A stretch of 64,000 nucleotides of DNA from Paragyromitra xinjiangensis (lineage: Eukaryota; Ascomycota; Pezizomycetes; Pezizales; Discinaceae), in NCBI GenBank assembly GCA_038503065.1, contig JBCAMK010000006.1, positions 1,364,001 through 1,428,000 of the forward strand. The letters run 5' to 3'. Position 1 is the stretch's first letter; each line of letters begins with the position of its first letter. This document shows, one piece after another, positions 9,283 through 62,043 of this stretch. The notes beneath the pieces were generated by a model. That model was not told where the DNA came from. It worked only from the letters and a program-made list of their open reading frames with translations, and ran no database searches. A program made the translations under genes and the position numbers.

Positions 9283-11056
9283 CATCAGCAAAAAAACGGA
9301 TTGTCGCCCGGTCCGCCCAATGCATCAGGCGCCCCAGGCGGTCGGGGCGGAATATAGCCCTCCCTCATGCTGTAAATTTTGCCCTTCACGTCTGGGCGAC
9401 AGCTTACTAGAGGTCGGCATGGGGGCGCCCTAGGTTCAGGAGGCTATTCTCTGGGCGACCACAGAGGGTTGACGAGCGTCTGGAGGACAGCGGGGGGAGA
9501 GCAGTGTGCCCACAGAATCACATTTTCAGCAGGTCACCCTGTGGTCTAGTTTGAAAGCTTTTGCCCATATTCTTGTTTACAATCGTTCTATTATTTCTAT
9601 ATAACTCTATATGTACATGTATCTGTTCTTCGTATCCTAGGGGTAGGGGGGGGAGCAGAGGCAGCGGAGGCTCCTGCAGCGAATCGACCAATTGGCGCAG
9701 GCAGCGGAAGCTGCAGCAGCAAATCGATCAATTGACTGAGGCGGCGGAAGCTCAGGCAGCGAATCGACCATATGGCGGAGGCGGAGGAAGCTCAGGCAGC
9801 GAATTGACAACCTCCAGGAGGCGGCGGAAGCTCAGGCAGCGAATTGACCATGTGGCGCAGGCAGCGGAAGCTGCTGCAGCTGTGGTGGAGGCGGCGGAAA
9901 CTCAGGCAGTGAATCGACCATAGGGCGCAGGCAGCGGAGGTGGAGGAAGCTCAGGCAGCAGATTGACGACTTCCAGGAGGTGGCGAAAGATCAGCTAGCG
10001 GATCGACCATATGGTGGAGGCAGCGGAGGCTGCAGCAGCAAATCGGTCAATTGACTGAGGCAGCGGAAGCTCAGGCAGCGAATCGACCATATGGCGCAGG
10101 CAGCGGAAGCTCAGGCAGCGAATTGACCATATGGCGGAGGTGGAGGAAGCTCAGGCAGCGGATCGACCATGTGGCGCAGGCAGCGGAAGCTCAGGCAGCG
10201 AATTGACGACCTCCAGGAGGCGGAGGAAGCTCAGGCAGCGGATCGACGACCTCCAAGAGGTGGCGGAAGCTCAGGAAGCTCAGGCAGCGAATCGACCATA
10301 TGGTGGAGGCAGCGAATCAACGACCTCCAGGAGGCGGCGGAAGCTCAGGAAGCTCAGGCAGCAAATCGACCAGCCAATTGAGCCACCTCCTGAGCTCGCT
10401 TAGGTGGAAGCAGCGAAGCAGCCAGCCAGCGGAGGCAGAGGAAGCTGAAGCAGCGGATCGAAGCGAGTCTAGGAGGCATATCAGCGTGAGTCAAATAAAC
10501 GGAATCAAGATGTTACCTAGGAGGTTCTTTGCAAGCAGAGCTTAGTACTTCGAGCCTAAAAGTCACGATGTTAGCAAAGTACTATGGTACAGCGAGGTAG
10601 GGGATGGGTGGGAGGGAATAGGAGATGGATGGGAGGGAATAGGGGATGGGTGGGAGGGAATAGGGGGAAGCAATAGTAAGAAGGACGGGAGAGGTGGAGA
10701 TTGGTGTCTTATTAGGCGTTGCTTTGGCGACGACTAAGCGACGACTAAGCGACCTGGAGACTTTTGAAAATCTCTAAGTGCCTGGGGGGAGGCGACGTGA
10801 ATTTTGCTAAGTCCCGAGTTTTCAGGGACTTAGAGAAAAAAAAAATTCAATCGGGCAACCTGCTAAGTACCACATCTGGGCGTGGGTGGCCGGAGCCGAG
10901 TGCCAGGAAGCCAGTGCAGTGTGCAGGTTGCGCCCACACAGGCCAGCGCTTGGAGCAGCTCGCCTAGGCGGTCGGGAAGGCCACAAACTCAGCAGGCGGA
11001 ATATGGCCTTCCAGAAGACAGGAAAGTGTCGGGGCGACATTTTTTTTTTGCTGATG
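9283..11056. mobile_element. 1.77 kb non-autonomous CATCAGC element (G1) inside half-LINE ORF1, TSD TC
   Basis: Left terminus is CATCAGCAAAAAAACGG at 9283. Right terminus is TTTTTTTTTTGCTGATG ending at 11056. The dinucleotide TC flanks both sides (9281-9282, 11057-11058). Removing the element and one TC restores the ORF1 context CCCACCTCCATTCC seen in other copies. Subterminal TTGTCGCCC and GGGGCGACA form the inner part of the terminal repeat. The interior is dominated by a 40 bp minisatellite and shows no transposase. Confidence 0.88.
9655..10480. repeat. 40 bp minisatellite with CCATATGG palindrome (array in G1)
   Basis: About 20 units resemble GCAGGCAGCGGAAGCTC plus AGGCAGCGAATCGACCATATGG, with a period near 40 bp. 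Because 40 is not a multiple of three, the reading frame rotates each unit. All three plus frames stay open for long runs (RRQRKLRQRIDHM, GSGSSGSELTIW, AEAEEAQAANRPYG). This argues for composition and not for coding selection. Confidence 0.85.
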
Positions 11057-11307
11057 TCCATTCCTTCTGGTGAAGAAGGATTCCAACACATCAGGTCAAA
11101 GGTTGAACAGTTCAACCCTGGCACTACCCTCATGCGTAACCCTCGCTGGCTCACCAGACCAGAGCAGAGAGAGGGCAAGCAGGCTTCCTCCATGGTCCTT
11201 ATCATTCAGAGGAAACAACCTGCCACCACTGCCCTTGAGAGAGGGCTCTCCCTTTTCGGACGCCGCCTCAAGGTTTCCAAATACCTTTGCTTTGGACAGG
11301 ATACCCA

Positions 11308-13107
11308 CATCAGCAAAAAACGGAAATGCCGTAAAGTCCCTCTGGACGCCAAAATGCCATGGCGGAAACCTACCCTTCTGGACGCAGCGTGGTCCAACTA
11401 CACGTCGTCCAGAAGACATGGGGTAGGAGCTTTGGCCGTTTGAAAGGCAGCGCTGTAGGCTCTAATCGTCTGGATGAGCTCTGGTCGCCTGGGCGGGCTC
11501 TGGTTGTCTGGATGAAGCCTGTCGACCTCTGTACGTCCGGGGGAACCTCTTGCGGGGCCAGCACATTTTGGTAGGTTTGGAATTGCACGCTTTGCTTGTA
11601 TGGCTTGTATGGCTCGTATGGCTCAAATTCGTTCTGTTGATTTATTTACTTTTCTATGGATCTAACTATATATATATGTACAAACATTTACTACCCGCAG
11701 CGAATCGACCTATTGGTGCAGGCGGCGGAAGCTGCAGCAGCGAATTGACCATATGGCGGAGGCAGCGGAGGCAGCGGAGGCTGCAGCAGCGAATTGACCA
11801 TATGGCGGAGGCAGCGGAGGCAGCGGAGGCAGCGGAGGCTGCAGCAGCGAATTGACCATATGGCGGAGGCAGCGGAGGCTGCAGCAGCAAATCCACCATA
11901 TGGCAGAGGTGGCAGAAGCTCAGGCAGCGGATCGACCATGTGGTGGAGGCGGAGGAGGCACAGGCAGCGAATCAACCATATGGCGCAGGCACAGGAAGCG
12001 CAGGCAGCGAATCGACCTATTGGCGCAGGCAGTGGAAGCTGCAGCAGCGAATCGACCATATGGCGCAGGCTACAGAAGCGCAGGCAGCGAATCGACCATA
12101 TGGCGGAGGCGGAGGAAGCTCAGGCAGCGGATCGACCATATGGCGCAGGCAGCGAATCGACCTATTGGCGCAGGCAGCGGAAGCTGCTGCAGCGAATTGG
12201 CCATATGGCGGAGGCAGCGGAGGCAGCGGAGGCAGCAGAGGCTGCAGCAGCAAATCGACCATATGGCAGAGGCGGCGGAAGCTCAGGCAGCGAATTGACC
12301 ATATGGCGCAGGCAGCGGAAGCTGCAGCAGCGAATTGACCATATGGCAGAGGTGGAGGAAGCTCAGGCAGCGGATTGACCATATGGCGCAGGCAGCGAAT
12401 TGACCTATTGGCGCAGGCAGCGGAAGCTGCAGCAGCAAATCAACCATATGGCGCAGGCGCAGGCAGCGCAGGCAGCGAATCGACGACCTGCCAGAGGCTG
12501 GCAGCGAATTTAGCTGCCTCCTGAGCTCACTTAGGCGGAAGCAGCGAGGCAGGCAGTGTGAATCGAACCGAGTCTAGGAGGCATATGAGCAGGAGTCAAA
12601 TAAACGGAAGCAAGACGTTACCTAGGAGGCTCTTGGGAAGCAGAGCTTATTGCATGAAGCCTAAATCTCACGATGTTAGTAGTGTTGCGAGGTAGAGAAT
12701 GGGTGGGAGAGAATAGGGGGAAGCAGATGGGAAGGAATAGGGGGAGGTGTCTTAGTAGGCGTTGCTTAGGTGTTGCTTAGGCGACACTTAAGCGAAGTTT
12801 GAAGATTTTGAAAATCGCTAAGTGCCTAGGGTCAGGGTTTTGACTTAGCGAAATAAAAAAAAAGTTCCGGCAGCTACACGCATCGGGAGGGTGTTGGACG
12901 CACACAGGTCGGTCGGTGAAAGCACGGGCTTCTAGAAGGGCGCTCGGGTGTTGGCTGGTGGTAAGAGTTACTCAGAGTGCGTCTAGATGCAGCACAGGCG
13001 CAGGCAGGCCGTCAGGAGGGGTTCAGGAGGCAATGCCCGTCTTCTAGAGGGTCAAAATGCCATTATACAATGTTACCCTTCTGGATGCCTTTTTTTTTTT
13101 ACTGATG
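11308..13107. mobile_element. 1.80 kb non-autonomous CATCAGC element (G2) inside the same half-LINE, TSD CA
   Basis: Left terminus is CATCAGCAAAAAACGG at 11308. Right terminus is TTTTTTTTTACTGATG ending at 13107. CA flanks both sides (11306-11307, 13108-13109). Removal restores GATACCCAATACACTC, matching the GACACCCAATGCACTAC context at about 1168 in copy 1. The interior matches G1: the same 40 bp minisatellite, a shared GAGTCTAGGAGGCATAT block (about 10470 and 12570) and a shared TTACCTAGGAGG block. It is a sibling of G1 with a different number of repeats. Confidence 0.88.
11697..12520. repeat. 40 bp minisatellite with CCATATGG palindrome (array in G2)
   Basis: It is the same repeat family as at 9655-10480, again about 20 units, with local expansions of GAGGCAGCG near 11760-11850 and 12190-12240. 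Open frames exist on both strands and are not treated as genes. Confidence 0.85.
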
Positions 13108-14209: not shown

Positions 14210-14456
14210 CATCAGCAAAAAAATTAATTGTCACCCAGTGCGTTTTGGTCTTCAGGTGCATCCTGATCTTCTGGAAGGCCACATTCCTTCAGAAGTACCA
14301 GGTGCAATTTTTCACTTTTAGTATGTTATCATTCAGCCTAATCCGGTAACAATATTTTTGGCACCCAGTATCATTTTGGCACCCAGTGCATCCTGATCTT
14401 CTGGAAGGCCACATTCCTTTAGAGGCACTGGATGCCACTTTTTTTTTTTGCTGATG
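14210..14456. mobile_element. 247 bp CATCAGC MITE (type E), TSD CA
   Basis: Termini are CATCAGCAAAAAAATTAATT at 14210 and TTTTTTTTTTGCTGATG ending at 14456, flanked by CA at 14208-14209 and 14457-14458. The interior is an imperfect long palindrome with repeated CTTCTGGAAGGCCACATTCC. Its central core (TTCAGCCTAATCCGG) also occurs, in reverse, in the MITE at 29939-30432 and in variant form in the three 249 bp MITEs. Confidence 0.9.
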
Positions 14457-21777: not shown

Positions 21778-22633
21778 CATCAGCAAAAATAATTAACGCC
21801 TCTAGCAGGATGGGCACATCTCCCGGGGAGGAAATCTCCTCCAAGTGCTCTGTGCTCTCCCGGGGCGCCTGGAGGCACGAGCGCCCGACCTGGATCTATC
21901 GGAGGATATGGCTTCTCCCGAGATATGCTGTACCCTCTATGAGCCAAAGGCACGATGCTAAGCCTCCACCCCACTCCTGGAGATTAGCTGTGTCTCCCCA
22001 GGAGCAAATTTTCTCCCTGACCTTCCTGACCTCCAGGCGTTATGGAGGATAGCAGCAATCCTTCTGGAGGATTTTGCCACTCCCTGACTTCATGTTTTCT
22101 TGTGGAGGAGCTTGCTGTCCCTCTTTACCAACTATTTGTTCCTGGAGCACCCTTCTTTCACTGTCTATCCCAGGGAGGACAATGTTAATCATTACTGAAT
22201 AATTGGGGCAAGTGTACTTACTAATTGCAGCTCCATCAGTAAAAATAATTAACACCTCCAGGAGCATCATCAGTAAAAAAAATTCTCGCCCACTAGGTAC
22301 ATATTCCGCCCTACCGCCTAGGCCACCTAGGAGATTTGCCTGCTTCTTTAGTTCTCCTGAACGACCTCTCTGCGTCCGGCACCCTCCCTGGAGAGCCTGC
22401 TTATATCACATCACCGCCCAGAAATACTCACCCTATACTTCATTTCTAGGAGGTGAAACGCCCTCCTGGTGCTTCGATTTGCCCCTATTGCCCTCATGGC
22501 AGGGCTGCTTTTGATTTTGATGCACCTGGAAGATATCGCTACTCCTGCATAATCCAATTTATTCAGCTACTTATAATATGGCGACAACCTCTAGCAAGTC
22601 GGTAAAAGGCTTTGTAGATTGCTACTCCACATC

Positions 22634-25600
22634 CTAATAGATATCGTTGAACGTTTCTAGGTCTATTCTACTGTTTACCAACCATTGTTCCTCTTCCTCG
22701 TCTGGAATCAGGTGCGCCATGCCTATAATTGAAGCCACGCTAATAACCCATTCATCACTATATGGTGTGTTTACTTTGCGTGAAGCCACCCTCACCAAGC
22801 TGCTGTCGGACTCTAGGCGTCTGGCGCCCTCCACCCGGAGCATTCTTACCAATGCTAAACGATGACTGTATCCGGTTGTAGGGTCCCGCAGTTTGAATAA
22901 ACATCTCAATTGACCAGGTAAACGCCCATGTAAGGCACCAAATTGAGTCTTGTCACCTACAGCCACCCATACCCAATCATTTCTTGGCGCAGCACCTCAA
23001 AATCGCTCCTGAATTGTACAACGAAAGCGATGTATGGTATATATATCAGTTTCCTGGAATTTGAGCACCGGCAGTTGAAGCTGTTTGAATCGTTCAGCTG
23101 GATAATGTAGCAACTTCCGTATATTGGTTGTCAGCTTGTGGGGGTCCAGCAAGCTTTTGTTGCTGTAGTCCACCACCTTTTGCACAAGTCGATCCTCCTG
23201 GTCCCCAAGCTCATAAGCCACATCTTTCAGTGACTTTGTCCTTTTAGTGCTGACGAGGCCCCGTAGCACCCGAGGTGGCCGGTATTCTGACCGAATATCG
23301 AGCTCTGCCAAAGAAGGCATCTCCTTTTGTAGAAAGTCTATCACCTCCTTCCCTAGGTCCTTTGCCGACTTCTCACAAGCTGCCTCTCGAACTGACACCA
23401 CATGCATAGACATTGTGTGGTGGCGGGAATAGTGCTCGAGAATTTGCTTCGTGGCGTTGTGTTTATTGGAGGCACAGTATCCAACCTTAATTTGCTGTTG
23501 GTGCGAGGCTTCGCCGACTTCGCCGACTTCTGTGGAGTAGCTGGGTATATTGCCAAATCGCTTGATATGGGACGTGAAGTGAGTCAAAAGGTGTATTTTG
23601 ATGAAGTTGAAATGGGATTCTTGGCGGTAGATATCTTGCAACTGCTCAGACCTCTCTAGTCGATCCTCCACAGCTGCCTTGCGCTTTTTGTTTGCTGTAC
23701 ACTGAGCAGTCGACAGCACCTTCTCTTGTGTTAGTCACAGTATTGCATCTGCCTGCTTTGCTTTAGCAGTCGCCTGCTTCGACCTGCGAAACTCTAGAAA
23801 GACGTCTTTATGCTTGTGAAACTTGTCAAATAATCCTCCATATATTCAAGGGTTTGCTTCGTATGGCTGCGATACTGAGCCATTAAGTGGAAGTCTAGAA
23901 GGGCTTGGGTACAGTTGAGGGCTTCTTTGAACGCGGGCCTCTCTGAAGCCGTTGGCTTCCTCAGAGCAACGGTCAACGCTGCTAGTAGAAACCGCCCAAG
24001 ATTCCGCATTTCTTTTCCTTGCCATTGAGTAACCTCCCGATAGGCCTTTTTAGGGATAGTAATACCAGTATATGGGGGAATAGACTTCCATGCTCTGTTG
24101 AATTGATCGAGGCGATTATGCTTTTTTAGTAAGCCCTGTATCCACTCCATTAAATGCTTCAAAAAGCCGAGATAGATAGTATGAAGAAGATCCGGTTTCC
24201 AGATCTCTTCTGGCCGGACTCTGGGAAGTCGCCAAAAGCTATTCATTGCTGCCTTTAGACCTCTCTCCTGAAGCCAATCTAAATTCTCGATATTGCCTGT
24301 GTCCCCAAATTGCTGCGCCTTGGCATTATACTCTTCATGATTGCGTGTGTTGAAGGGCAAAATAGTTAGCTGGCCTAGATTCTCAGCGTCAATCTCACAC
24401 ACAGGGCAACAGTTATTCTTCATGTGCTGCAGGGTGACATGCTCCAAGTGGTCGGCAATCCAGCCACAGAGTATTGGAAAGCAGAATCGCAGTTGCCCAT
24501 CAGTGCACGACAGCTCGATGCTGTTCGCTGCTGGCTCGTAGAAAGCTGACAGCATCTTATCCATGACCAAATCAAGGATCACTCGATTCCTGACTCTTTG
24601 AGCTTCGGCTTCTTTCGTTTTCAGCTAGCCAAACTTAGGGGGGATGGGAAGAAGTGCCAGAAGCACCATGGCCATTGCTGACATTTTGTTTTGCACTGTG
24701 GATTTGATATTGCCTATCATCAGATAGATAGGCCAAGCCTTTTTATCTTCAGAGAAGTTAGTGAGGTAGGTTTGATCTGATGTGCAAAGAACTGGAACGA
24801 CTGTGGAGCCAGAAGGAAGAGTCTCCTATAACCGATTAGCAAGAAGCGCCAGCTCTTGAGAGGTCACAGGCGTTACCTGTAAATCCCACCACCAATCAAC
24901 TGTATGGAGCTCTGAATACATGCGCTCACCAGCAAGATTGAGCTCACGTATAGGAGCATAAACCATATCATTTGAATAAGCTGCTTGGCTAATTAAATAT
25001 CGAATACAGACCATTGGATCGCGATGTGCCAGCACGACGGACTCTCCATCCACTACCTCCTCTATAAACTCCCAACTGGGCGCCCCTAAAGTTGGGGGTA
25101 GGTTCTCGATGACCTTGAAAAGGGTATAGGCGGACTGATAGGAGCCGGCACCTTGATATAAACCTTTCTTGAAGTAATCTTCAATGCCAGTCTCTGTCGT
25201 TTTGGTGTCAATAAACCATTTTGCTTGGTGGAAATCATATGAGGTGTGGAACGGAAATATAGGATCATCAAGCAGTCTTTTCTGAGCCTCATGAAAGCCA
25301 GCTGCTTCGCCAGCCAACCTCCCAGCGTCCGGAAAGGAGATGATAGCAATTGTTGAGGCACGAAGCGTAGAATCAGCCTCATTCTCCTCATCAGATGCTC
25401 CAACAGGCTCTTCGTTCGAGTTGTACTCTGGTGGCATATCCTGAGTATTTGTAGGGCCCCAATTCTTGTCAGTCTCTTCTATATCATCCTCCCACTTGAA
25501 GGAAGTAGCCGACGACTGCTGACTGGCTGATGGATTGCCGAATAAGCGTGGGAAATACTGCTTGCTCAACAGCTCATGCTCATTCTTGAGATGAGTCTCC

Positions 25601-25653
25601 CAGGCTGTAGAATAAAGATAGGTGTGGCGACAGAAAGGGCAAACCTGAGGCAT
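22634..25653 (-). pseudogene. Plavaka transposase A (broken)
   Basis: The minus-strand gene starts MPQVCPFCRHTYLYS with a C2H2 finger (CPFC...HLKNEH). An acidic linker follows, then the catalytic region with QAKWFIDTKTTETGIEDYF, MVCIRYLISQAAYSNDMVYAP, DKKAWPIYLMIGNIKS, CGWIADHLEHVTLQH, CPVCEID and PDLLHTIYLGFLKHLMEW. The end is INRIDLETFNDIY-like. A 51 bp intron (24876-24826, GTAACG...TTATAG) lies after DWWWDLQ. Breaks: a TAG near 24627, a one-base frameshift near 23830, a TGA near 23736 and a TGA at 22997-22999. Family assignment rests on recognisable similarity of this architecture to Plavaka/CACTA-type transposases, and on resemblance to genes B and C here. Confidence 0.8.
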
Positions 25654-26450: not shown

Positions 26451-26887
26451 ACCCCCTCCAGCTCCCTTTAGGGACCCCCCCCATACACCCCACCTCCTCC
26501 TGTCGGTTCAGGACCATCCTCCATGTCTTCCTCTTCGTCTAGAGGCAGAGAAAGAGGCAGAGGCTTCACGTCTCCCTCTTCTGTGACTAGTTTACCTCAA
26601 AGCACGCTCCAAACGCCGTTTGGTGCCCCTACAACACCCCCAAACACCCGTTTTTCGCCATTGTTCCATGGAGACCCTGAGCAAACACCTACTCAAGCCC
26701 TGCCACTTCGCCCAGCAGTCCCCCTATCCCTCTATGCCTCCCTGCCCGCCACAGAGCCTACAGACAGTGGCTCTGTCCTCCTGGAAGAGTCTGACTCTGA
26801 CATGACGGACACTGAGGGACCCCTCACCTTTTCCACCACCCTACCTCCAGTCATCCAGATGGATGACAGTAACAGCAACCTAGATCG

Positions 26888-47599: not shown

Positions 47600-47975
47600 C
47601 ATCAGCAAAAAAAAAATGTCGCCCCGACACTTTCTTGTCTTCAGGAAGGCCATATTCCGCCAGATTAGTTTCTGGCCTTCCAAAGCGCTTGGAAGACCGC
47701 TGCGAGCTGATAAAACCTCCTGACGACCTTTCTCAGGTTGTCATCTTCCAGTGGCTGTATTCATGCCGTGCCTTCTGAACGGTCCCTTTGTTTCTAGGTT
47801 GTCTTCGGGACACCTCCACTGCCGTGGCCTGTCGCCAGGTGGCATTGATCCTTGGTGCTGGAGATGCTTTCCGATCCTGATGAGCTTTCGCTGTATGTGT
47901 GATATATTTGAATTACTATTTATTGACGACCTCTAGTAGGTCGTCGCCAGGTTCTATGCACAATCCCACCATCCG

Positions 47976-48335
47976 ACTACCCCTTGGATCGACTTTTGCT
48001 GCGTAAGCCCTTCATGTCGACCCTCCAGTGACTACCCCTTTGGATAGACTTTTGCTGCGTAAGCCCTTCATGTCGACCCTCCAGTGACTACCCCTTTGGA
48101 TCGACTTTTGCTGTGTAAGCCCTTCATGTCAACTCTCCAGTGACTACCCCTTTGGATCGACTTTTGCTGTGTAAGCCCTTTGTGTCGACCTCTGGTAGGT
48201 CGTCGCCAGGTTCTATGGACAACTCCACCATCCGACTACTCCTTTGGATAGACTTTTGCTGCGTAAGCCCTTCATGTCGACCCTCCAGTGACTACCCCTT
48301 TGGATCGATTTTTGTTGTGTTAGCTTTATGCCGAC
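47976..48335. repeat. 56 bp tandem repeat in the left arm of element B
   Basis: About six copies contain CTACCCCTTTGGATCGACTT, TTTGCTGCGTAAGCCCTT and GTCGACCCTCCAGTGA, with some units replaced by the GACCTCTGGTAGGTCGTCGCC word. It lies between the end of the transposase gene and the terminus, a usual place for transposase-binding repeats in CACTA-type elements. Confidence 0.8.
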
Positions 48336-48380
48336 CTCTGGTAGGTCGGTAATGGATTCTCGCTGTGAGTTCCAGCCCCT

Positions 48381-51344
48381 CTAGTATATGTCATTGAACG
48401 TCTCAAGGTCCACTCTACTATTTACATACCAATAGCCCTCTTCTAGATCCTGCACTAGATGAGCCATTCCTGTAATCGAAGCAACACTCACAACCCACTC
48501 GTCATTACCAGGAATCCGTACATTACGGAGGCCAACTCGAATCAAGCTGCTGTTGGCCTCCAAGAGGCCGGCACCATCCAGTGGAAGCATTTTGACGAGC
48601 GCGAGCCGATGGGTATGTCCTGAGCTCGGATCGCGGAGCTTAAACAAGCATCTCAATCGGCCAGGTAAGCGCCCACGCAAGGCACCATATTCGGTCTCGT
48701 TTCCTACCATAACCCAGACCCAGTCATTCCTTGCAGCCCCTCCTCGAAATGGCATATTGATCGTACATCGAAGGTGGTGTATGGTATAGAGATCGGTCTC
48801 TTGGAATTTGAGCATGAGGACCTGAAGCTGGGTAAAGCGCTCCGCTGGGCACAGTCTTAGCTTGATGTTGTTGGTTGGCAACCTCTGGGAGTCCGGCAGC
48901 GTACTGTTATATGACTCTACCTTCCGCACTAATAGACCCTTGGTATCACCAATATCTAGCATCACATCTTCGAGGGATTGAGTCAAACAGGCGCTTATAC
49001 GTCCTCGGAGGTAGGATGGGGGCTTTCTTTCTGCTCTGATATGTGGCTTGCACCAAGCTGGAACCTTCTCCTTCTCCAGGAGATCCCTCACGTCTTTTGA
49101 GAGTGATCCTGCCGGCCTTTCACGAGTCGCCTCCCAAATGGATATGATACGCATAGCCATCAAGTGTCGACGGGAATAGTGCTCTAAGATCTGCTTAGTT
49201 GCATTGATCTTATTCGAGGCTCGATAACCAACTTTGATCTGTTCTCGATGCGAGGCTTTACCGACCTCTGTGGAGTAGGCAACGATATTACCGAACTGCC
49301 TGACATGTGTGCTGAAGTGGCTCAATAGGTGCATCTTGATGAAGTTGAAGTGAGATTCTTGACGGTAGATATCCTGGCACTGCTCTGACCTCTCCAATCT
49401 ATCATCTACCACCACCTTTCGCTTCTTCGCTGTACTCTGAGAGGCCGTCAACAGTTCCTTCTGAGCTTGCCACATAGCTTTGTTGGCTCTCTTTGCTTTT
49501 GCATTCGTCGCCTTTGATTTGCGGAATTCGAGGAAGATATCCTTATGCTCGTGGAAGTCCTTCAAATAGCCTTCCATATAGTCAATAGTCTGTTCAGTGT
49601 GGCTGCGATACTGAGCCATTAGGTGGAAATCGATTAAGGCTTGGATACAGTCCAGAGCCCTTTTAAATGCCGGCCTTTCAGAGGTCGTCGGCTTCCGCAG
49701 AGCAACTGTCACCGCTACTAGGAGGAATCGACCAAGGTTTCGCATCTCTTTGCCCTGCCACTGAGTCACCTCTCGATAGGTCTTTTTGGGGACTGTGATG
49801 CCCGTATAGGGGGGAATGGACTTCCATACTTTGTCGAATTGGTCGAGTCGGTTGTATTTGCTAAGAAAGCCTTGGATCCATTCCATCATATGCTTCAAAA
49901 GACCTAAGTAGACTGTATGTAAAAGGTCGGGCTTCCATAGAGCTTCTGGCTGGACTCAGGGAAGCCGCCAGAAGCTGTTCATCAGTGCTTTCATACCTCT
50001 CTGCTGCAGCCAGTCTAGATCCCCTATTGAGCCTGTCTCTTGATAACGTTTTACTCGAGCCTTATAGCAATCGTGATTGCGTACTGGAAAGGGCTGCGTA
50101 CGAGGCTGACCTAGACTGGAGGCGTCAACTTCGCAGACGGGGCAAGCATTATTCTTTAGGTGTTGGAGGGTGACGTGCTCTAAATGGTCTGCCAACCAGC
50201 CGCAGACTACTGGGAAGCAGAATCGCAGCTGACCATCAGCACATGAAAGCTGTACACCGTTTGTGGCCGGCTCGTGGAGGGCTGACATAGTCCTTTCCAT
50301 GGCAAGATCTAGAACCGCACGATTTCTTGATCTTTGTGCTTCAGCAGCCTTGATCTTCAACTTGCCGACCTTTGGCGGGACGGGAAGCAGTGCCAGCAGC
50401 AATGATGCCATTGTGGAAGGTTTGTTTCGAAGTGTGGATTTGATATTGCCTATCGTCAAATAGATGGGTCAAGCCTTTTTGTCGCCTGAGAAGTTGGTAA
50501 GATGTGTTTGCTCTGACGAACAAAGAATTGGAATCAATGTGGAGCCAGCGGGGAGGGTTTCCTACAACTTATTAGAAAACTCCGACGGCTCCTGGAAGGT
50601 CGGGAGACTAACCTGGAGATCCCACCACCAATCAGCTGTATGCATTTCTGAATACATTCTTTCACCGGCAGGGTTGAATTCCTTCACTGGAGCGTAGACC
50701 ATTTCCCCTGAATATGCTGTTTGGGCCAGCAAATATTGTATACAAACCATAGGATCCCGATGGCAGAATACAAAAGGCTCCCCATCAATCTCCTCCTCTA
50801 TGAAGGTCCAACTAGGCTCTCCCAAGGTCGTCGGCAGGTTTTCAATCACTTTGTAGAGGGTGTAGGCGGACCGATAGGAGCCGGCACCAAGGTAAAGACC
50901 TTTCTTGAAGTACTCCTCAATGCCAGTCTTCGTTGTTTTGGTATCAATAAACCATTTGGCTAAATGGAAGTCATAAGCAGTGTGGAAGGGGAATAAAGGG
51001 AATTGGAGCAAGCTTTCCTGAGCTTCTAGAAAGCCAAGCACACTTCCTGCCGACCTCCCTGCGTCCGGTAAAAAGCTTTGACTGATACTAGGAACTTCGG
51101 CTGTACCATTATCGTTGTCTTCAGCATCAGAGGCTGTAGCTGGTTCTTCGTCTGAATTATTGTCCGAATCGTAAATTGATCCATCACTCCTTTCGTCCAG
51201 GTAGTCCTCTGCCGGCTCCTCTCGGTCCGTCAGTGAATCGTCAAGATAAACTTCTGCTTGTTCAGGGTGCTTGGTCAAGATATGGGTCATCAAAGCTGAG
51301 CTTTAGTCGTAGGAATATCGACAAAAGGGGCAGCGGTCTGGCAT
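48381..51344 (-). pseudogene. Plavaka transposase B (intron plus several nonsense codons)
   Basis: The minus strand starts MPDRCPFCRYSYD (51344) with a C2H2 finger completed by HILTKHP. An acidic linker follows, then HLAKWFIDTKTTKTGIEEYF, MVCIQYLLAQTAYSGEMVYAP, DWWWDLQ, a 51 bp intron (50612-50562, GTTAGT...CTAATAAGTTGTAG), then ETLPAGSTLIPILCSS. The core continues CGWLADHLEHVTLQH, CPVCEVD, PDLLHTVYLGLLKHMMEW, and the C-terminus is SRVDLETFNDIY. Nonsense codons: TAA just before 51300 (YD*SSALM), TGA near 50463 (KA*PIYL, Trp in A), and TGA near 49946 (RLP*VQPE, Arg in A). Between them all segments stay in phase. It is recently inactivated, yet its element ends are intact. Confidence 0.85.
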
Positions 51345-52271
51345 GTTTGGAGATTTGGTGGTAAAAGGGGTAACGAGGTGTTGTGGAATAATAGGGGACT
51401 GATGGTCTGGCAGTGACGACCTCTGAAGAGCCGGAGAAGAGTTCATAGCACTCTCAGCCGTGTCTCCAGGGGTTGAGAGCAGGGGTTGAGCTGACGTCGA
51501 GGTTGATATGACACCTGATTCAGCATAAGAGCCGCAATTCAACAGCTTGGACCTTTGCAGCCGACGCAGCCTGTCTTTGAAGCTCAACGACCAGCTCAAT
51601 TGCAGCTCAACAGCAGCAAGATCCTCAAAAAAAAAGTTGCTCTAAATTCTGTGATTTTCTGGCGTGTGGGTCCTCCACCGGCCTTCAGGAGGTCGGCAGG
51701 CTCCTCTCTCGATATTTGCACATATTGAAATAGCGCTAGTACTATATAACCCTAACCCTGAGCCCTTTAAGAGTTTCGGATTTGCTAACTCTTACGTCAA
51801 CCCTCCACCTCACCTTCCAACCTCTACCCCTCGCACTATTCACACCACCCCCTCCCTCACAGCCTTCCTATTCAACGCAACGTTTCAAACTGCTGCTGCT
51901 GCTGCTTCCATTCAGCTCAACGTTTCAAGCTGCTGCTGCTGCTATTCAGCTCAATGTTTCAAGCTGCTGCTCTCGCAATCTTCCCTTCCAGCTTGAATAG
52001 CTGGTAAAGGCTATAAAATGGCGGATATGGCGCCCCTAAGCAAGTCAGAACCAAGCAGCGCAAACAAAACCCCCCCGCCCAATCCAAACAATCAAACGAC
52101 CCCACCAAACAGTGTACCGACCTCCCGCAAGCCGTCGCAAACAGATCTATCCACACGACGAATATCCCCAAGCTTAACCCCTCCCCTCGACAAAAAACTC
52201 CAGTATATCGAACACCCCGGCCATCAGCAACCCAAACGACCTCTCCCAAGCCGGCAAACTCCCCTACCAAG
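51345..52271. promoter_or_regulatory. Divergent promoter region between transposase B and its accessory gene
   Basis: This space separates the minus-strand transposase from the plus-strand 435 aa gene. TATA-like CTATATAACC (about 51742) and GGCTATAAAATGGC (about 52010) face the plus gene. CCGGCCTTCAGGAGGTCGGC near 51678 is one of the element's palindromic words. GCTGCTGCTGCT tracts lie near 51890-51940. Open frames here (51664-51996, 52018-52302) are low-complexity and not called. Confidence 0.5.
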
Positions 52272-53579
52272 ATGCCGCCCCGCGCCAGAGCGACGGAAAT
52301 GACTGCAGCAGATCTCAAAGTAGTGTTGGGCTTCAACGCAACCAACAATCCAGCCTATTTGATTGTTCGTGATGATATTGTTTCCTACGCTATTCAGCAC
52401 GGTATCACAGGCGTTGACACCCCTGGAAAGGCTGCCTGGACTGCCTGCGAGGAGCACGCAGTCAGCCACAAATACTTGAGCCGTTTCAAGGAAGCCTACG
52501 ACGGAGCAGGGCCGAAGGAGAACTGCGCGCTCGTTCAGAAGGCTATCAAATGCCTTTGCCTTGACTCTATCAAGAAGAAGAACGCTGCCAGAGTAGCAGC
52601 AGATAAGCAGATGGCAAATAATGGTGACTTTGATGGACCTGCTGCCGGCCTCGCTGGAGTCGTCGCTGCTGCTGGTGCTGGTGCTCGTGCTGTACCTCCA
52701 CCTTCCCACGTCATTCGAGTCCGCATTATCGATCCTGACCAAATTGGTGACTACGACAGTGATGCACCTGTACCACGCCGGACAAACGGATATGGCTGGG
52801 ACCCAGCTAATACCATCTTCGATAAGCTGACGACCTTCCTGGAGCCGGTCACACACCGTGATATCTTGACATACGCAGCAAAGCATGTCGTTGAGAATCG
52901 TCGCGCTCGTGCAGTTTGGGGAGCTCTTATCCCCATACCTGAAGACTTTCGGATATCTCACAACGATGAGATGATTCTCAGCGAGGATGATGAGGTGACG
53001 GCCTGGCTGAGGTCGACAACGGCTAACCCCCTGGTTGTGAACGTTATTCTTCATCGGGTTACTGCCAAAGGAATGGCTTCGCGCCAAACCCCGCCGCCCC
53101 CTGGCGAGCGGGCACATATCTCCAAGCGCTATTTCGCCACTCTTCTCGAGGACCCTGCTGAGGATTCTGACGAGGACGACCGCCCGCTTCGGAAGAAGTT
53201 TAAGCCACTGCCGCGTACAGATAGGGGCTTCCAAGCTCGCGAAAGGAAGATTCGGGCACGGATCTTGCGCCAGCAAGAGCTCCTAGAGTCGATCAAAGAG
53301 CATCATAAGGAGATAACGCCAGACGCCATGTTTTCTGACGAGGAAGGGTTTGAGAATAGGTATATGTCGGCCCCTCAGAGGCGGGCAGCTAGGGCAGCGG
53401 CTAAGGCAGCGGCTGGGGGGGAGGATTCGGAGGATTCAGATGATTCGGAGGATTCGGTGGAAGAGAATGAGGATAGGAATGAGAACGAGAATGAGAACGA
53501 GAATGGTGGGGAGAATGAAGAGGATGGAGAGAATAGGGAGGGTGAGCCTGACGTGGGAGGTGGAGCTGCCGCCACTTAG
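52272..53579 (+). CDS. Accessory protein of Plavaka element B, 435 aa, unknown function
   Basis: A single open frame starts MPPRARATEMTAADLK at the first ATG after a TATA-like box, divergent from the transposase. I do not recognise the family. Visible parts are an N-terminal alpha-helical-looking domain (residues about 10-110), an Ala/Gly spacer (about 120-140), a second folded-looking domain (about 145-270, with YGWDPANTIFDKLTTFLEP), a basic segment with RKKFKPLPR and RERKIRARILRQQELLESIKEH, and a highly acidic tail (EDSEDSDDSEDS, NENENENENG). It is intact, unlike the transposase. Basic plus acidic tracts suggest a nuclear, perhaps DNA- or chromatin-associated, helper; that is a guess. Capture of a host gene is the alternative. 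Confidence 0.7.
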   Translation: MPPRARATEMTAADLKVVLGFNATNNPAYLIVRDDIVSYAIQHGITGVDTPGKAAWTACEEHAVSHKYLSRFKEAYDGAGPKENCALVQKAIKCLCLDSIKKKNAARVAADKQMANNGDFDGPAAGLAGVVAAAGAGARAVPPPSHVIRVRIIDPDQIGDYDSDAPVPRRTNGYGWDPANTIFDKLTTFLEPVTHRDILTYAAKHVVENRRARAVWGALIPIPEDFRISHNDEMILSEDDEVTAWLRSTTANPLVVNVILHRVTAKGMASRQTPPPPGERAHISKRYFATLLEDPAEDSDEDDRPLRKKFKPLPRTDRGFQARERKIRARILRQQELLESIKEHHKEITPDAMFSDEEGFENRYMSAPQRRAARAAAKAAAGGEDSEDSDDSEDSVEENEDRNENENENENGGENEEDGENREGEPDVGGGAAAT

Positions 53580-54735
53580 CTTCTACCTCCATTTTGTTCT
53601 TGATTTCCTCTTTTCTTTGGTTTGTAGTTGTGGTAACCCCCCCTCGGCCTCCTGGAGGTCGGCAAATTTCTTTACCCGTTTCTTTTTGTTTTCCTTTGGT
53701 CGATATATGATGGATACGCATGATTATTTTTTGGTAGGTCAAATTTCCTCCCGTGCGGTTACCTAAATACTGACTAGCCTGTGAAGGTTTATGTATAGTG
53801 TTTACCGACCTCTCAAAGGTCGGTGGTCTTGGCTTTCCTATTCTTATTATTATTATACCGGATGCTTTATATGTTTTATATCCTTTGTTTCATATTCTTT
53901 GTTTTATGTTGTTTTAGGGGGTAGAGGAGGCAGCAAGGCGTGGATGAGTGCTGGTACGCTCCCTCCTGCTAATCGTTTGAGATCCAAAGCTGACTCTTAG
54001 GTAGTATCCGACGACCTTCAGGAGGTGGGCAGGATCTTTATATTACCCTATTATCTGTATTATTCCTATTATTCCTATTCTTTGTATTACTCCTATTATT
54101 TGTATTATTTGTATGATTATGGCGGTATCGATTGGATGTTAGATATCTTGGCGTTTCTATTATTGGCTTTGGGGGCAGCAAGACATCGGCCGTTGCAGGT
54201 ACCCTACTACCCTATCAATCTTTTATAGCTAAACGCTAACGTCTATGAGACAGTATTTGCCGACCTTCAGCGAGCTGGTAGAGGGTCTTACTATCTTTAT
54301 GGCGTCATTTGACTGGATTCGCTTAATTATTAATCATTTTTATGTATTCACAAATATATCTACTAGCCGCTGCTGCTAGGTGTGGCAGCAGAGCTGAAAA
54401 TACAGTCATTTCCACAGTCATAGTGCGCTTCCGTGGTAACCAATGTTTTGCGAGTCCGTGCAAAGCCCCTTTACTTATTCCCCCAAGCAGACGCCAACCT
54501 CTCTCAGGCTGGTCAATACCTTACCTCTCATCCAAAAAGCTGTCGACTCCCTACTTCTCAACAAACTCCTTTACCACTACAGAAAAAATGATCAGAGATT
54601 CAGGTAAGAAAGCTGGCACTTTAAAACGCCGTTCCATACAGATAAAACCTTTCCTACCACCCCCCCCCTCCTTCAGGAATCTGCCGTCTCGTGAGAGATC
54701 GGTGGAAGGATATAGGGGGATACAAAGCTATGAAG

Positions 54736-54846
54736 ACGCAGCAGAAGACGAAGACGAAGACGAAGACGAAGACGAAGACGAAGACGAAGACGAAGACGAA
54801 GACGAAGACGAAGACGAAGACGAAGACGAAGACGAAGACGAAGATG
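54736..54846 (+). repeat. (GACGAA)n hexanucleotide repeat, about 18-20 units
   Basis: A pure GACGAA microsatellite sits inside the second accessory gene and encodes an Asp-Glu run. Length is probably polymorphic between copies. Confidence 0.9.
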
Positions 54847-55322
54847 ACGAAGATGAAGAGGAAGAAGGAGAAGGAGAAGGGGGAGAAGACAATAACGATG
54901 AGAATATAGGGCTCTTTCGTAGAACCTACGAGAGTGACGATTCAGATGGATATGAATTACCTCCGACCTCGGAGAGGCCGGCAGGTCCTTCCAAAAAGCC
55001 TGCTGCAAGGCATCGAGAGATGATACAGGCAAACCTCATTCGCAAAAAACTGGCAAGTACAATTAATTCCCAAGTCATTTTTAATAGCCTACTAAGGAAT
55101 GTGATAGGACATCAATTTGGAGCCAGTACTGAGCAGTGTCATGCCGACTCCTCTGCAGCCGGCACATGGTAGCCTGGGTAGTATGATCAACACGACTCAT
55201 AATTGCAATCGAGACCGAAGCGTGTTCTGCGCAGAAGACTCCCTGCAGCCTGTTGCTCGGCTTGCAAAGCTATATATTGCTTCTTTCACCTACTTCAGGC
55301 ATCCCTTTCCTGACGGAATCGA

Positions 55323-55571
55323 CATCAGCAAAAAAAGATATTTGTCTTCTGGACCTTCAGATGCAATATGGCCTTCTGGAAGACCCTGAAGACCCTGAAG
55401 ACAAAATCTCACTGGAAGACAAAAAATATGTTCCCGGATTTGGCTGAATGATAACATATCAAAAGTGAAAAATTGTCTTCCAGTCCTTCAGATGCAATAT
55501 GGCCTTCTGGAAGACACTGAAGGCCCTGAAGACATAATCTCACTGGAAGACAATTACTTTTTTTGCTGATG
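55323..55571. mobile_element. 249 bp CATCAGC MITE (type D, copy 1), TSD GA
   Basis: Termini are CATCAGCAAAAAAAGATATT and TTACTTTTTTTGCTGATG; GA stands at 55321-55322 and 55572-55573. Each half holds TTCAGATGCAATATGG, CTTCTGGAAGAC and TCACTGGAAGACAA, giving a direct and inverted repeat structure around a core with CCGGATTTGGCTGAATGA. It is inserted in the second accessory gene of element B. Confidence 0.93.
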
Positions 55572-57083
55572 GAGATGGCTAAATGGACGAAAAGAGCCTG
55601 GGCAACTGCCAAGAGAGATATGGGCGTAGCATGCCCTATCAGCAAATTGTGCTACAACCTGGTATGTTGCCGGCCTCTGTGAAGTCGATTGAGTATTCTA
55701 ACAGCTCTTAGCTAAAAGCAAAGCAATCAAGCACACGGTCCCAATTTCTCGCTCACATCAAAAAGAACGTGTTGACCGCCTACAGCCTCACAGATCTGAA
55801 CGAGGAAGAGCGCCAGAAGAAGATTGAATATCTGCTAGATGAAGACAGGTTCACCTGTCACCCTGATGCGTACGAGGTCAGTACAAACTCCTACTAGTAT
55901 ATGACAACCGCTAACGAGCTGGCAGAGTCTAGAGGGTAGATTCCTTGCTCCACAAATTCCCTCCCTGATATTTAGTAAGTTTTACGAAGGTAAGAAGGCT
56001 CTCGGAAGGTCGGATAGAACTTTCATTGGGAGTATCAATGCTGTATTTATTGCAACGACCGCAGCAACGATATATCACTGTCTCTCTGCTTGGAAAACAG
56101 GCGCCTATAAAGACCCCAAGGACTTCAACACGGGAAACTCTCTCTGTAAGTTATGGACGACCTCTGGAAGGCTGGTATTCTCTGCTGACAAGACGATAGA
56201 CCCTTGGCACCGTCAGCTGAACACAATACAGATCTTGCATTTCGAGATTCGGGAAATGTTACTAAATGATATCTGCCGCCAGATCAATGAGCTTGTATGG
56301 TATCTCCCCCTGACAGCGTGATACTAGCTAACAGTATTAGCGAGCGAAGGGGCACGTTGGCCCAGATATCGAGTCGCAGAATGCCTTCCGTGGAGATCAA
56401 GAACAACTAAAAGCAACACTAGAGCTGCGGAAGAGGAGCTCGTCGACGGCCCTCCAGCAGCCGTATGCTCGGTGGGCTCGGCAGTCAGGCTCTGGCCTAA
56501 TCCCTAGTGACCCGATTGAAGAAGTGGCTGCCATCCTGGCGGCAATCCCTGCCTCGGAGGGAAACGGCACCTAGGAGCTTGCCGATGACCTCACATGAGC
56601 TGGCATGAAGTATTGGAAAGGTGTTAGGGGGAGGGTCGAGCGAGAGGAAGGATAGGGAAGGGAGGCGAGAGGTGAGGTGAGCGGAAGGAGGAGAGGCAGC
56701 TAGAGATATTTGTAATAGAGCAATAGACTAGAGTGTTTCAAGGAATATATAGCCATTTTACCAAACGCCTGAATATAAGCCTCCTAAAGATAAGGCTACA
56801 CGATCATAAGCATCCATAATCCCCAGAACATCAAATCCGGAAAGGATGCGTCCGGACTGTAGGAGGTCATCAGGATCTCCGGGAGAAACGATGTCGAAGC
56901 GGAGCCTTCCAGAGGCTGAGCTACCACAATAGTTGCGAAAGGGGTCATCATGACTGACGGCCTCCCAAAGGTCGCCTCCAGGCGCAAAGAGCAAAGTTTA
57001 CAACCTGAGGGAGAGCTATATTCCGCCCCGACCACCCAAGGCGTCTGATGCATTGGGCGACATTTCAATTTTTTGCTGATGTT

Positions 57084-57286: not shown

Positions 57287-57535
57287 CATCAGCAAAAAAA
57301 GATATTTGTCTTCTGGACCTTCAGATGCAATATGGCCTTTTGGAAGACCCTGAAGACCCTGAAGACAAAATCTCACTGGAAGACAAAAAATATGTTACCA
57401 GATTTGGCTGAATGATAACATATCAAAAGTGAAAAATTGTCTTCCAGTCCTTCAGATGCAATATGGCCTTCTGGAAGACACTGAAGGCCCTGAAGACATA
57501 ATCTCACTGGAAGACAATTACTTTTTTTGCTGATG
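57287..57535. mobile_element. 249 bp CATCAGC MITE (type D, copy 2), TSD TT
   Basis: It has the same length and nearly the same sequence as 55323-55571 (small differences, for example TTACCAGATTT for TTCCCGGATTT in the core). TT stands at 57285-57286 and 57536-57537. Confidence 0.93.
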
Positions 57536-58876: not shown

Positions 58877-59178
58877 ACGAAGCCGATGGACCGAGTGGAA
58901 AGTCACTTCTTTTTGTTGTAATCAGAGAGGGTACAACCCTCCTCAGGCTGTTTGCACCTTTAACTCTGACTCTGACATAGACTCTGACGCTGACGCCAAC
59001 ACCAATGCTGATATCGAGACTGACAGGATGCTGTTATTGACTGGCATGCGTTTGCTCAGTAAACTGTGTTATACATCTCGAGATCGATATAGTTGTTGAT
59101 GAAATATCGTCCTTTTCATCCAATTTCAGCCGGTATAAGATGAACTGCACGATATATATGGCTTACTGGGATGACTCT

Positions 59179-62043
59179 TCACCTGGTTGAAGCCCCGTCT
59201 GCTGATATCTCAGATTGCTTGCGTACCTCTACCATTCCGTTGTTCGGATTCGGTGTGCCGGATCCCATGATTTCAAAGTATTCCACCAGGGCCAATTGAT
59301 GACTGACATAGCGAAAAACGGATCGGCCTCTGTCGTCTTTGTCACCGTTAGGAACCTTGTCAACCAATTTAAAGACACAGATGAGCGCTGCCGGCTTCAG
59401 GCCGGTTTCACTGAAGTAGCTTCTGTTGTTGGCACTGCCGGCTGTAGGCTCTCCGTGGACAAGCACATTATCATACCGGGGTCCGCTACCCCTCCAGTTG
59501 TTGATGCACCAAGCAAACTCTGTGCAGATTTTCTTGGGAGAGTTGTGGCTAGGAAAGCGCGCTACTAATCCTGTGCCTAAGTAGACCATTTGCGTCTTAA
59601 TCCATGGGATGCTGGTACGGGATTGAATCAATTTATCGCTTGTGTTTTTGCTGGCCCTGACCGTGGTCAGGTAATTTTTAACAAGGCGCGGAAGCTCTGA
59701 CTCTGACTCTGACTCTGACATGTTGGCGTGTGCTGGTATCCGTATTTGCTGCAACTGTATTCGCCTTGGAATTACTCCACTGATGACGGTTTTTCCCTCC
59801 TGGGGTTGTGCATCAGCAAAAAAAGATATTTGTCTTCAGGACCTTCAGGTGCAATATGGCCTTCTGGAAGACCCTGAAGACCCTGAAGACAAAATCTCAC
59901 TGGAAGACAAAAAATATGTTCCCGGATTTGGCTGAATGATAACATATCAAAAGTGAAAAATTGTCTTCCAGTCCTTCAGATGCAATATGGCCTTCTGGAA
60001 GACACTGAAGGCCCTGAAGACATAATCTCACTGGAAGACAATTACTTTTTTTGCTGATGTGGAACACTTTGGACCAACATGGAACATAACGGCGCCCACC
60101 GTGAACCGATCTCTTTTAAGTGCTGGAGGAGTGCAACACGTTCTTTGACCTCAAATAGTCGACCTTCCCATGCTAACATCTGCGGTATCGGATTGACTCG
60201 ATTAGTTGATCGATAAGCTTCCTTAATCATGTAGGAATGAGCTGCTTCACTTTGCTCTGTATCGGTATTGTCGCACGATCCGAATTCGCGAATACTTTGA
60301 GTGTAGTGACGCATCATGTGAAGCTTCGGTATTCTGTAGAAATTGCCGGAGTCTCTGGACTCCACAAAGTTCACTAGCAACTTCTCATACTCTGCCATAG
60401 CTTCGTCCATCATTTCCAAAGTGTCCTCGGTGTGGGAGTGATAACCGGCAAAGAGAATGAAGTCTGTGAGATGCTTCAGACATTTCAAATGATCGGGCCG
60501 CCTTTTGAAGAATGGTGTTAGAACCCCAATCCAGACCTTTAACAGTTGCTTGTATTCTGCTCCCGTCCACTGCGAAACTTGAGAAAACCTTTCGCCAAAG
60601 TTCTTCAAATCAGTGAAAGGGGGGATGCTTCTGAATCGCTTATCAACTTCAATCATAATGCTTTTACCAAACTGGCTTTCAAGGTAAACGGTAACCCATG
60701 ACCAAGTATGGTCCTTTAAAACTCCTTTTAGCAGCTGATGAAGTCGATCAGGATTGATTGCATGGTGGATGTTGCAGTGGGTGTGATAAGTCGCAAAGTT
60801 CTCAAAGTCACAGCTCCATTGACTGACAGTCTCCATATCATCTTTCGTCATCTGGGCGTAACGAGCAGGGTCTCTGGCGACAGATGGTGCTCCCGTTAAG
60901 TCACTTAGATTAGTGGGTGGGCATTCCCACCGAGGACACCATCCTGACTTGATCAGTGTCAGAGTGACCATTTCGGGGTAGTCAGCTATCCATGTCGCAA
61001 TGCGAGGGAACACGATCCTCGTATATCCATCTGCGCAAACAATCTCGACTCCTTCGCGCCCAGCCGCCTCGAAAGGGCGTAAGATTTGTTGTATTGCTTC
61101 GTGGAAAGCTTTTCTCGTTGTGAACCTTTTGGGAGCCTTGGGCATCTTCGGGAGAAGCGCAGCAAGTACCAGCCCATTCAAGTTGGTGACTCGACGTTTC
61201 TCCTTCTCGAGATTCCCAATTGACATATATACCGGCCAGGCACTTTTATCGCCAGTGAGTGTAGATAGCATGGTTTTATCAGTGCCTATGATCACTGGCG
61301 CAATTGTGGCTCCTGGAGGGGCGTTTAGCTAACTCGAGAACGAGTGTTAGAATCGGGAGTCAGAAACGGGAGTCAGAGCATTTGGTCTATACCTGTTGGC
61401 GCCACTACCAGTCTCCTGTCCACATCTCGCTATATAATTTCTGGCCAGTGGAGTCGACATCTTTGATCGGGGCGTAGGTAAGATGGTCTCGGAATGTTTG
61501 AGAACCGAAAAGGTGTTTTAGGATTGTAATCACGTCCCGATAGTAGTACTCCCGACCAACACCTTCCACTTCAACCGTACCCTTTATCCACTCACAATCT
61601 AGACTGTCGCCCATTTCACGTACTAATTCTCGAAGGTGGTTGGCGTCCCTGATATTGACCTCGTCCTTGAATAACCCACGACGTATCATGCGGTCCAAGA
61701 CGTTTTTCCCCGTATTCTCCTCAACATGTGCACAACAGAAATCCCATTGCAGTTTTGATTCAAAAGGTGACAAAGGATTCCAATTAGGGTCTTCATGGCG
61801 GCAAGGCATCTGGGGATGTGGAAGAGGAACCCCTGCCCCAGGAAAGATATTGGGCTCGGCGGGTTCTTCGGCGTTGTCTTCCATGGGAGTCTCATCACTA
61901 TCGCGCTCGGGATTCGTGTCAGGGAAAAGTATTCCTCGGGGGTTCAGCCTCCGTCTCTCGTGAGTTCTCCTGTGATGGTTGGTCAAGCTACCCTCCCGAG
62001 TAAAGGTTCTTAAACATATCTGGCAAGAAAAGTTCCGGGGCAT
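59179..62043 (-). pseudogene. Plavaka transposase C, split by a MITE, one nonsense codon
   Basis: The start is MPRNFSCQICLRTFTREG with HHRRTH completing a C2H2 finger. The catalytic region has LTYAPIKDVDSTGQKLYSEM, then an in-frame TAG (GD-W*-WRQQ, Trp expected), a 64 bp intron (61392-61329) at the same site as in A and B, and PPGATIAPVIIGTDKTML. The core follows (GDKSAWPVYMSIGNLEK, TWIADYPEMVTLTLI, INPDRLHQLLKGVLKDHTW). The MITE at 59811-60059 cuts after SMLVQSVP. Removing it with one TG gives continuous coding sequence into LQQIRIPAHANMSES, and the C-terminal domain (YDNVLVHGEP, ALICVFKLVDKVPNG, RYVSHQLALVEYFE) ends at 59179. Divergent from A and B, it is a separate subfamily. Confidence 0.82.
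59811..60059. mobile_element. 249 bp CATCAGC MITE (type D, copy 3) inside transposase C, TSD TG
   Basis: It has the same length as copies 1 and 2 and differs at a few positions (TCTTCAGGACC for TCTTCTGGACC, TTCAGGTGC for TTCAGATGC). TG stands at 59809-59810 and 60060-60061. Its removal restores the host open frame, so the insertion is recent relative to decay of that gene. Confidence 0.94.

What the first reader, a model, noticed from the sequence alone, without database searches (positions are those of the whole stretch)
9283..60059. One terminal sequence shared by an autonomous element and at least eight unrelated-looking non-autonomous elements
CATCAGCAAAAAA-type ends with a 2 bp TSD occur at 9283-11056 (TC), 11308-13107 (CA), 14210-14456 (CA), 29939-30432 (AA), 30030-30274 (TG), 55323-55571 (GA), 57287-57535 (TT) and 59811-60059 (TG), as well as on element B. 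Additional single ends are at 8761, 21778, 22234, 22269, 32097, 47451 and 63748. TSDs of different sequence but constant length make coincidence very unlikely. I infer cross-mobilisation by Plavaka transposases.
Basis: partly seen in the sequence, partly recalled or inferred. Interest (0 to 1): 0.9.

Follow-up and report, generated by a model that had tools for sequence, protein, structure and literature searches.

The report
Plavaka jumping genes and their hitchhikers
The window holds a fungal-type cut-and-paste transposon of the known Plavaka kind together with several short elements that carry the same end sequence but no enzyme of their own, so they most likely move with the help of Plavaka enzymes; this is a good, clear example of a known kind of system.

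Summary
All 8 listed pairs, and element B (47600-57081), have CATCAGCAAAA-type ends and equal flanking dinucleotides (9 of 9). Three have uninterrupted sister copies in the window, which proves a 2-bp target duplication. In this 48.2-Mb genome the 13-mer occurs 398 times (reversed control 1); 21 of 24 adjacent end pairs sampled and 8 of 8 Plavaka-transposase elements fetched also have equal dinucleotides. These ends and duplications are those published in December 2025 for PlavakaB (CATCA..TGATG, 2-3 bp; PMC12730594), so the kind is known. The eight elements are four families, one of them a 247-249-bp family with five copies. General cross-mobilisation is not shown. Behind the first 11-13 bases the ends are lineage-specific and go mostly, not always, with transposase clades. 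One non-autonomous family matches one lineage at both ends, another at one end, two by shared internal motifs. This resembles plant CACTA elements. A side result may be newer: a second gene, head-to-head with a transposase at 47 of 53 loci, a candidate subterminal-binding partner.

The parts
47600..57081 (-). Element B, transposase-bearing Plavaka element (9482 bp, includes nested 55323-55571), TSD TT
   Evidence: Ends and TT/TT flanks; left end 97/100 identical to L068 and L069, right end 87/91 to L067 and L070, ends of transposase elements C7:854164 and C15:997343; no empty site found in the window
48384..51302 (-). Plavaka transposase exons of element B
   Evidence: PF18759 E 3.2e-29 (49959-50468) and 3.2e-18 (50565-51302); the piece 48384-49955 has no PF18759 match at E <= 1
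52017..53576 (+). ORF2, second gene of element B, head-to-head with the transposase
   Evidence: 53 loci in the genome, 47 head-to-head with a PF18759 hit; dN/dS 0.20-0.64 in 6 of 6 comparisons; no Pfam match for this copy
9283..11056 (.). Non-autonomous element e1, TSD TC, B-lineage ends, internal 40-bp array
11308..13107 (.). Non-autonomous element e2, TSD CA, internal 40-bp array related to that of e1
14210..14456 (+). Short non-autonomous element e3 (247 bp), TSD CA
29939..30432 (-). e4: copy of the e3 element split by e5, TSD AA
30030..30274 (.). e5, 245 bp, nested in e4, TSD TG; CCTCTGTGGCC-type motif shared with the F lineage
   Evidence: empty site; shared words; 13% of its length matches L083 at 88%; second copy in L038 flanked TC/TC
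55323..55571 (+). e6, 249 bp, nested in element B, TSD GA
57287..57535 (+). e7, 249 bp, TSD TT
59811..60059 (+). e8, 249 bp, TSD TG
22268..22278 (+). Probable end of the second CATCA-type Plavaka copy (transposase 23000-25659, minus)
   Evidence: 82/99 identical to L089, the end downstream of the transposase locus L032; L032 and the window copy are in one transposase clade
23000..25659 (-). Second Plavaka transposase copy (winA)
   Evidence: PF18759 E 9.6e-27 (23797-24624) and 9.5e-15 (24829-25659); the piece 23000-23734 has no match
63748..63758 (+). Left end of a further Plavaka-type element that runs out of the window
   Evidence: 90/90 aligned bases identical to ends L072 and L074
47451..47461 (+). 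Single end of another end family
   Evidence: clusters with L073_35+
21778..21788 (+). Single end, same end family as 32087-32097
   Evidence: 73/97 identical to 32097-; flanks AG and TT differ
32087..32097 (-). Single end, same end family as 21778

Best explanation
These are PlavakaB-type cut-and-paste DNA transposons and their non-autonomous derivatives. The first 11-13 bases (CATCAGCAAAAAA) are the part common to the lineages and most likely the place where the transposase cuts and joins, leaving a 2-bp duplication of varying sequence. Behind it lie lineage-specific subterminal sequences. A non-autonomous family is mobilised in trans mainly by the transposase lineage whose subterminal sequence it shares: e1 by the B lineage, e2 probably by the L026 lineage, the 247-249-bp family probably by the B lineage, e5 probably by the F lineage. 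Shown: ends, 2-bp duplications, three empty sites, association of the ends with Plavaka transposases. Inferred: cutting site, mobilisation in trans, lineage specificity.
For: 9 of 9 window pairs, 21 of 24 sampled genome pairs, 8 of 8 fetched transposase elements, permutation test, 3 empty sites. The left and right ends of e1 are 90/100 and 85/98 identical to the two ends L076 and L075 of one and the same transposase element, C2:2817033. The 20-mer GTCTTCCAGAAGGCCATATT occurs exactly 33 times in the window and the loci held: 8 at B-type ends, 25 in e6-like copies, 0 elsewhere; these loci were chosen for their ends. e5 shares 16 11-mers (both strands counted) with an F element against a mean of 1.2 and a maximum of 12 in 200 simple shuffles and matches it over 13% of its length at 88%. 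Transposase tree of 53 exons: 8 of 9 B-clade loci have a B-type end nearby (one of the 8 at 4.8 kb; the ninth had no end fetched), 3 of 3 F-clade loci an F-type end, and L104-L106 share one end type. Published PlavakaB: CATCA..TGATG, 2 or 3 bp TSD (PMC12730594, passages).
Against: The tree does not fit the ends everywhere: L025 (e1-type end), L108 (B-type end), L110 (e2L-type end) and L034 lie in other clades than the nearest end suggests, and two elements with F-type ends (C14:1192400, C17:259767; 11.6 and 14.3 kb) enclose a transposase of the L009 clade, perhaps by nesting. e2 is matched to a transposase lineage at one end only; its left end is 98-100% like L004, L094 and L098, not tied to a fitting transposase. 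3 of 24 sampled pairs differ (GC/GG, CG/CA, AG/CA). No movement was observed. Ends were found by searching for the motif, so its own constancy is partly circular.
Confidence: 0.88

Rival explanations
1. General cross-mobilisation: any Plavaka transposase of this group moves any element with CATCAGCAAAA ends, whatever lies behind them.
For: In 18 ends compared, 9 of the first 11 positions are invariant and 2 agree in 17 of 18, and transposase lineages with such ends are only 40-50% identical to each other; the four non-autonomous families look different inside.
Against: Non-autonomous families carry lineage-specific sequence behind the shared end, which would not be needed. Choice by motif makes the shared part look more constant than it may be.
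Confidence: 0.25
2. The short elements belong to another transposase family and resemble Plavaka ends by chance.
For: Two Tc1/mariner-like DDE_3 remnants lie in the window.
Against: Duplications are 2 bp of many sequences (TA in only 3 of 36), not TA only; 398 motif copies against 1; the same ends on 8 of 8 fetched Plavaka elements.
Confidence: 0.03
3. Chance pairing of a frequent 13-mer.
For: 3 of 24 sampled pairs do differ.
Against: 36 of 39 equal dinucleotides against a permutation maximum of 14; three empty sites.
Confidence: 0.01

Closest known systems
PlavakaB DNA transposons (Kojima 2025, PMC12730594, passages read)
   Same: Plavaka transposase, CATCA..TGATG ends, 2-bp duplications
   Different: The main text does not contain the word 'subterminal' and its theme is TET/JBP-carrying families; in this genome the 4 Tet_JBP matches (2 over the cut-off) lie outside the elements studied, judged by position only
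Plavaka and non-autonomous DNA elements of Marasmius oreades (PMC8290104, passages read)
   Same: Plavaka defined by PF18759; non-autonomous families assigned by the TIR and TSD of autonomous ones
   Different: The TIR figure is in a supplement that was not read; a link of subterminal sequence to transposase lineage was not in the passages seen
CACTA (En/Spm, Tam1, Tgm) elements of plants (PMC2613891, passages read)
   Same: Conserved 13-bp end, subterminal sequence that differs between families, derivatives moved in trans; a second protein (TNPA) binds the subterminal repeats
   Different: 3-bp duplication and CACTA ends; no sequence relation was tested; whether ORF2 acts like TNPA is unknown

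Membership tests
PlavakaB | Plavaka transposase (PF18759) | tested here: met
   Element B exons E 3.2e-29 and 3.2e-18; non-autonomous elements lack it by definition
PlavakaB | Termini 5'-CATCA..TGATG-3' | tested here: met
   9 of 9 window elements, 8 of 8 fetched transposase elements; elements were found by this motif
PlavakaB | 2 or 3 bp target site duplication | tested here: met
   36 of 39 equal dinucleotides, 2 of 2 more; three empty sites
PlavakaB | C(2)C motif in the transposase domain | tested here: met
   C..C in 49 of 53 exon translations; none in winC, L038, L109, L120, whose translated pieces may be incomplete; [quoted passage not shown]
PlavakaB | H(3-4)H motif | tested here: inconclusive
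   Not resolved by the pattern used
PlavakaB | Place in the published PlavakaB clade of the transposase tree | not tested
   The published sequences are in a supplement that was not read
Tc1/mariner | TA duplication only (recalled) | tested here: not met
   TA in 3 of 36 equal pairs
CACTA/EnSpm (plant type) | 3-bp duplication and CACTA ends | tested here: not met
   Ends CATCA and 2-bp duplication

The most novel reading that the evidence does not exclude
PlavakaB elements are two-gene systems: the transposase recognises the common 11-13-bp end, and ORF2, a fast-changing protein encoded head-to-head with it, binds the lineage-specific subterminal sequence and so decides which non-autonomous family is moved, as TNPA does in CACTA elements.
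Probability: 0.3. Interest if true: 0.55.

Novelty: new member of a known kind. Interest (0 to 1): 0.35.

Why it matters
It gives a clean, countable case of non-autonomous elements that depend on Plavaka transposases, with proven empty sites, and lets the question 'one end for all, or one subterminal code per lineage' be put to a direct test. The conserved second gene would, if its role holds, extend the two-protein plan of plant CACTA elements to Plavaka.

Tried and rejected
Chance and Tc1/mariner were tested and rejected. A whole-genome table of flanking dinucleotides was planned with NN in front of the pattern; the tool drops leading N, so flanks were read from fetched stretches. A first clustering of transposase loci ignored their strand and was replaced. 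Homologues of ORF2 in the protein database: of the 7990 candidates scored none had E <= 0.001. A structure prediction of the ORF2 N-terminal part from one sequence had a mean pLDDT of 42.5 and was not used further. ORF2 against Pfam: no match for the window copy; Tri-helical PF24465 below its cut-off in L127 (E 0.00049) and L131 (E 0.016); L131 has further matches below cut-off, the best DUF4746 (E 0.0015), largely over its acidic stretch; none in L137, L139, L083. An alignment call failed for wrong coordinates and was not repeated. A paper search for the string CATCAGCAAAA gave 15 papers; the 10 listed look unrelated by title.

The 40-bp array was first thought to be part of a transposase element (L075, L076), but the units lie outside its ends, so that idea was dropped.

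Of the 98 PF18759 hits used, 14 have correctly oriented exact ends on both sides within 9 kb; 8 of these were fetched, one more is element B, and 5 were not tested (C1:2829909, C6:1424693, C7:212577, C9:320783, C9:325942).
Full report
What is there. The window is G000:C6:1364001-1428000 of a 48.2-Mb, 22-contig genome. Pieces of ordinary genes in it (ammonium transporter, SET, diacylglycerol kinase, RRM) come as separate short open frames, as expected of a genome with introns. The species was not identified. The eight pairs listed and the pair 47600-57081 have equal flanking dinucleotides, 9 of 9.

Insertion is proven at three places. e1 and e2 cut a non-LTR gag-like sequence, and a sister copy of it in the window runs through the sites without a break, with one copy of TC and of CA. 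e5 cuts a 247-bp element whose unbroken copy at 14210-14456 has one TG. For the other six elements no sister site was found in the window.

Genome-wide test. The 13-mer CATCAGCAAAAAA occurs 398 times against 1 for the reversed pattern. The A-run has 6 bases in 72 places, 7 in 166, 8 in 6, 9 in 27 and 10 or more in 127. Only the first 100 places were listed; in them a forward end is followed by a reverse end within about 3 kb 24 times. All 24 pairs were fetched: 21 have equal dinucleotides, and the three others are GC/GG, CG/CA and AG/CA. Of 6 non-adjacent pairings in these loci 2 are equal. Fourteen of the 98 PF18759 hits used have correctly oriented ends on both sides within 9 kb; 8 were fetched and all 8 have equal dinucleotides, one more is element B, and 5 were left. 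Window, 22 sampled pairs and 8 elements give 36 of 39; permuted pairs gave a mean of 4.7 and at most 14. With the two pairs added last it is 38 of 41.

Which transposase. Element B holds PF18759 exons. The genome gave 125 PF18759 matches; I used 98, dropping 27 by hand, nearly all companion exons. Of the 98, 22 have a correctly oriented end 1.5-3.2 kb downstream and 2 a wrongly oriented one; upstream at 4.5-7 kb the numbers are 13 and 5; positions shifted by 15-60 kb gave 1.9 and 2.0 downstream, 2.7 and 3.0 upstream. The end list used there holds 305 of the 398 places, so these are lower bounds. Kojima 2025 (PMC12730594, passages read) states that PlavakaB families have CATCA..TGATG termini and 2 or 3 bp duplications. 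This is the same kind of element.

How many families. The eight non-autonomous elements of the window are four families. e1 has 10 relatives among the loci (1.5-2.2 kb, 9 of them matched over their whole length, one over 69%). e2 shares with e1 a related internal 40-bp array (61-63% coverage, 72% identity) but has other ends. e3, e4, e6, e7 and e8 are one family of 247-249 bp with two subfamilies 73% identical. e5 has one further copy, in L038, flanked by TC/TC.

Shared end or lineage code. I compared 18 ends picked by hand: two from one cluster, one from each of the other 15 clusters with more than one member, and one single; 8 singles were left out. Nine of the first 11 positions are invariant and two agree in 17 of 18, partly because the motif was the search key; agreement falls to 13 of 18 at position 13. 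Behind this, ends fall into clusters, and these go largely with the transposase tree of 53 exons (L115 was too short). Both ends of e1 match the two ends of the transposase element C2:2817033 (90/100 and 85/98); the right end of e2 is 80/99 identical to the end near the L026 transposase. The 20-mer GTCTTCCAGAAGGCCATATT is found exactly 33 times in the window and the loci held, 8 at B-type ends and 25 in e6-like copies. e5 shares CCTCTGTGGCC-type words with the F lineage. Against this: L025, L034, L108 and L110 do not fit their nearest end type, and two F-ended elements enclose an L009-clade transposase, possibly by nesting. So lineage matching is favoured, not proven.

22268 is most likely the end of the second Plavaka copy (transposase 23000-25659); 63748 is the end of an element that leaves the window; 47451 and 21778/32097 belong to other end families; 22234 and 8761 stayed alone. 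21778 and 32097 have different flanks (AG and TT), so they are not a proven pair.

A second gene. ORF2 of element B (52017-53576, +) gave 71 matches, merged to 53 loci; 48 lie within 6 kb of one of the 98 PF18759 hits and 47 of 53 are head-to-head with it; 48 of the 98 hits have such a partner. It is 25% identical over its best stretch to the ORF2 of the F-lineage element L083 (E 6e-13 for that one comparison). dN/dS was 0.20-0.64 in 6 of 6 comparisons among 8 sequences, and the third codon position changed most often of the three. It has no Pfam match above cut-off and no homologue among the candidates scored in the protein database at E <= 0.001. In plant CACTA elements the second protein TNPA binds the subterminal repeats (PMC2613891, passages read). 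I propose ORF2 as a candidate for such a role; nothing here tests it. Eleven papers of the library hold the word Plavaka; I read passages of three of them (PMC12730594, PMC8290104, PMC9674265) and saw no mention of such a gene there, but did not read their supplements or the other papers.

Verdict. The kind of system is known. Literature searches behind this.

Noticed in passing
52017-53576 (+): ORF2, second gene head-to-head with Plavaka transposases at 47 of 53 loci in the genome; no known domain above cut-off; candidate subterminal-binding partner.
   Followed up: partly
9658-10372 and 11697-12484: A 40-bp tandem array lies inside e1 and e2 although their ends differ; the same unit occurs in loci with a third end type (L002, L003, L005-L008) and was not found inside element B or in L083.
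   Followed up: partly
60045-62085 (-): A third Plavaka transposase copy of a distant lineage, 29-35% identical to ten of the lineages compared and 39% to L118, without a CATCA end that could be assigned to it; possibly PlavakaA.
   Followed up: no
2353-7403 (-), 1-1448, 8818-13383, 26472-29593: Non-LTR retrotransposon with endonuclease, RT and RNase H (2353-6006), and several gag-like copies on the other strand (no Pfam match for 3-1436), one of them broken by e1 and e2.
   Followed up: partly
14695-15126 (+), 31014-31565 (+): Two Tc1/mariner-like DDE_3 remnants.
   Followed up: no
58127-58977: Array of 63-bp repeats, ten register positions reported, between e7 and e8.
   Followed up: no
L061, C1:3431858-3432259: One of four Tet_JBP matches (this one just below the cut-off) lies about 0.9 kb from an e1-type element (C1:3433111), outside it.
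   Followed up: no
L075, L076 (C2:2817033-2826347): A B-lineage transposase element lies between 40-bp array units on both sides, so it seems to have inserted into a non-autonomous relative.
   Followed up: no
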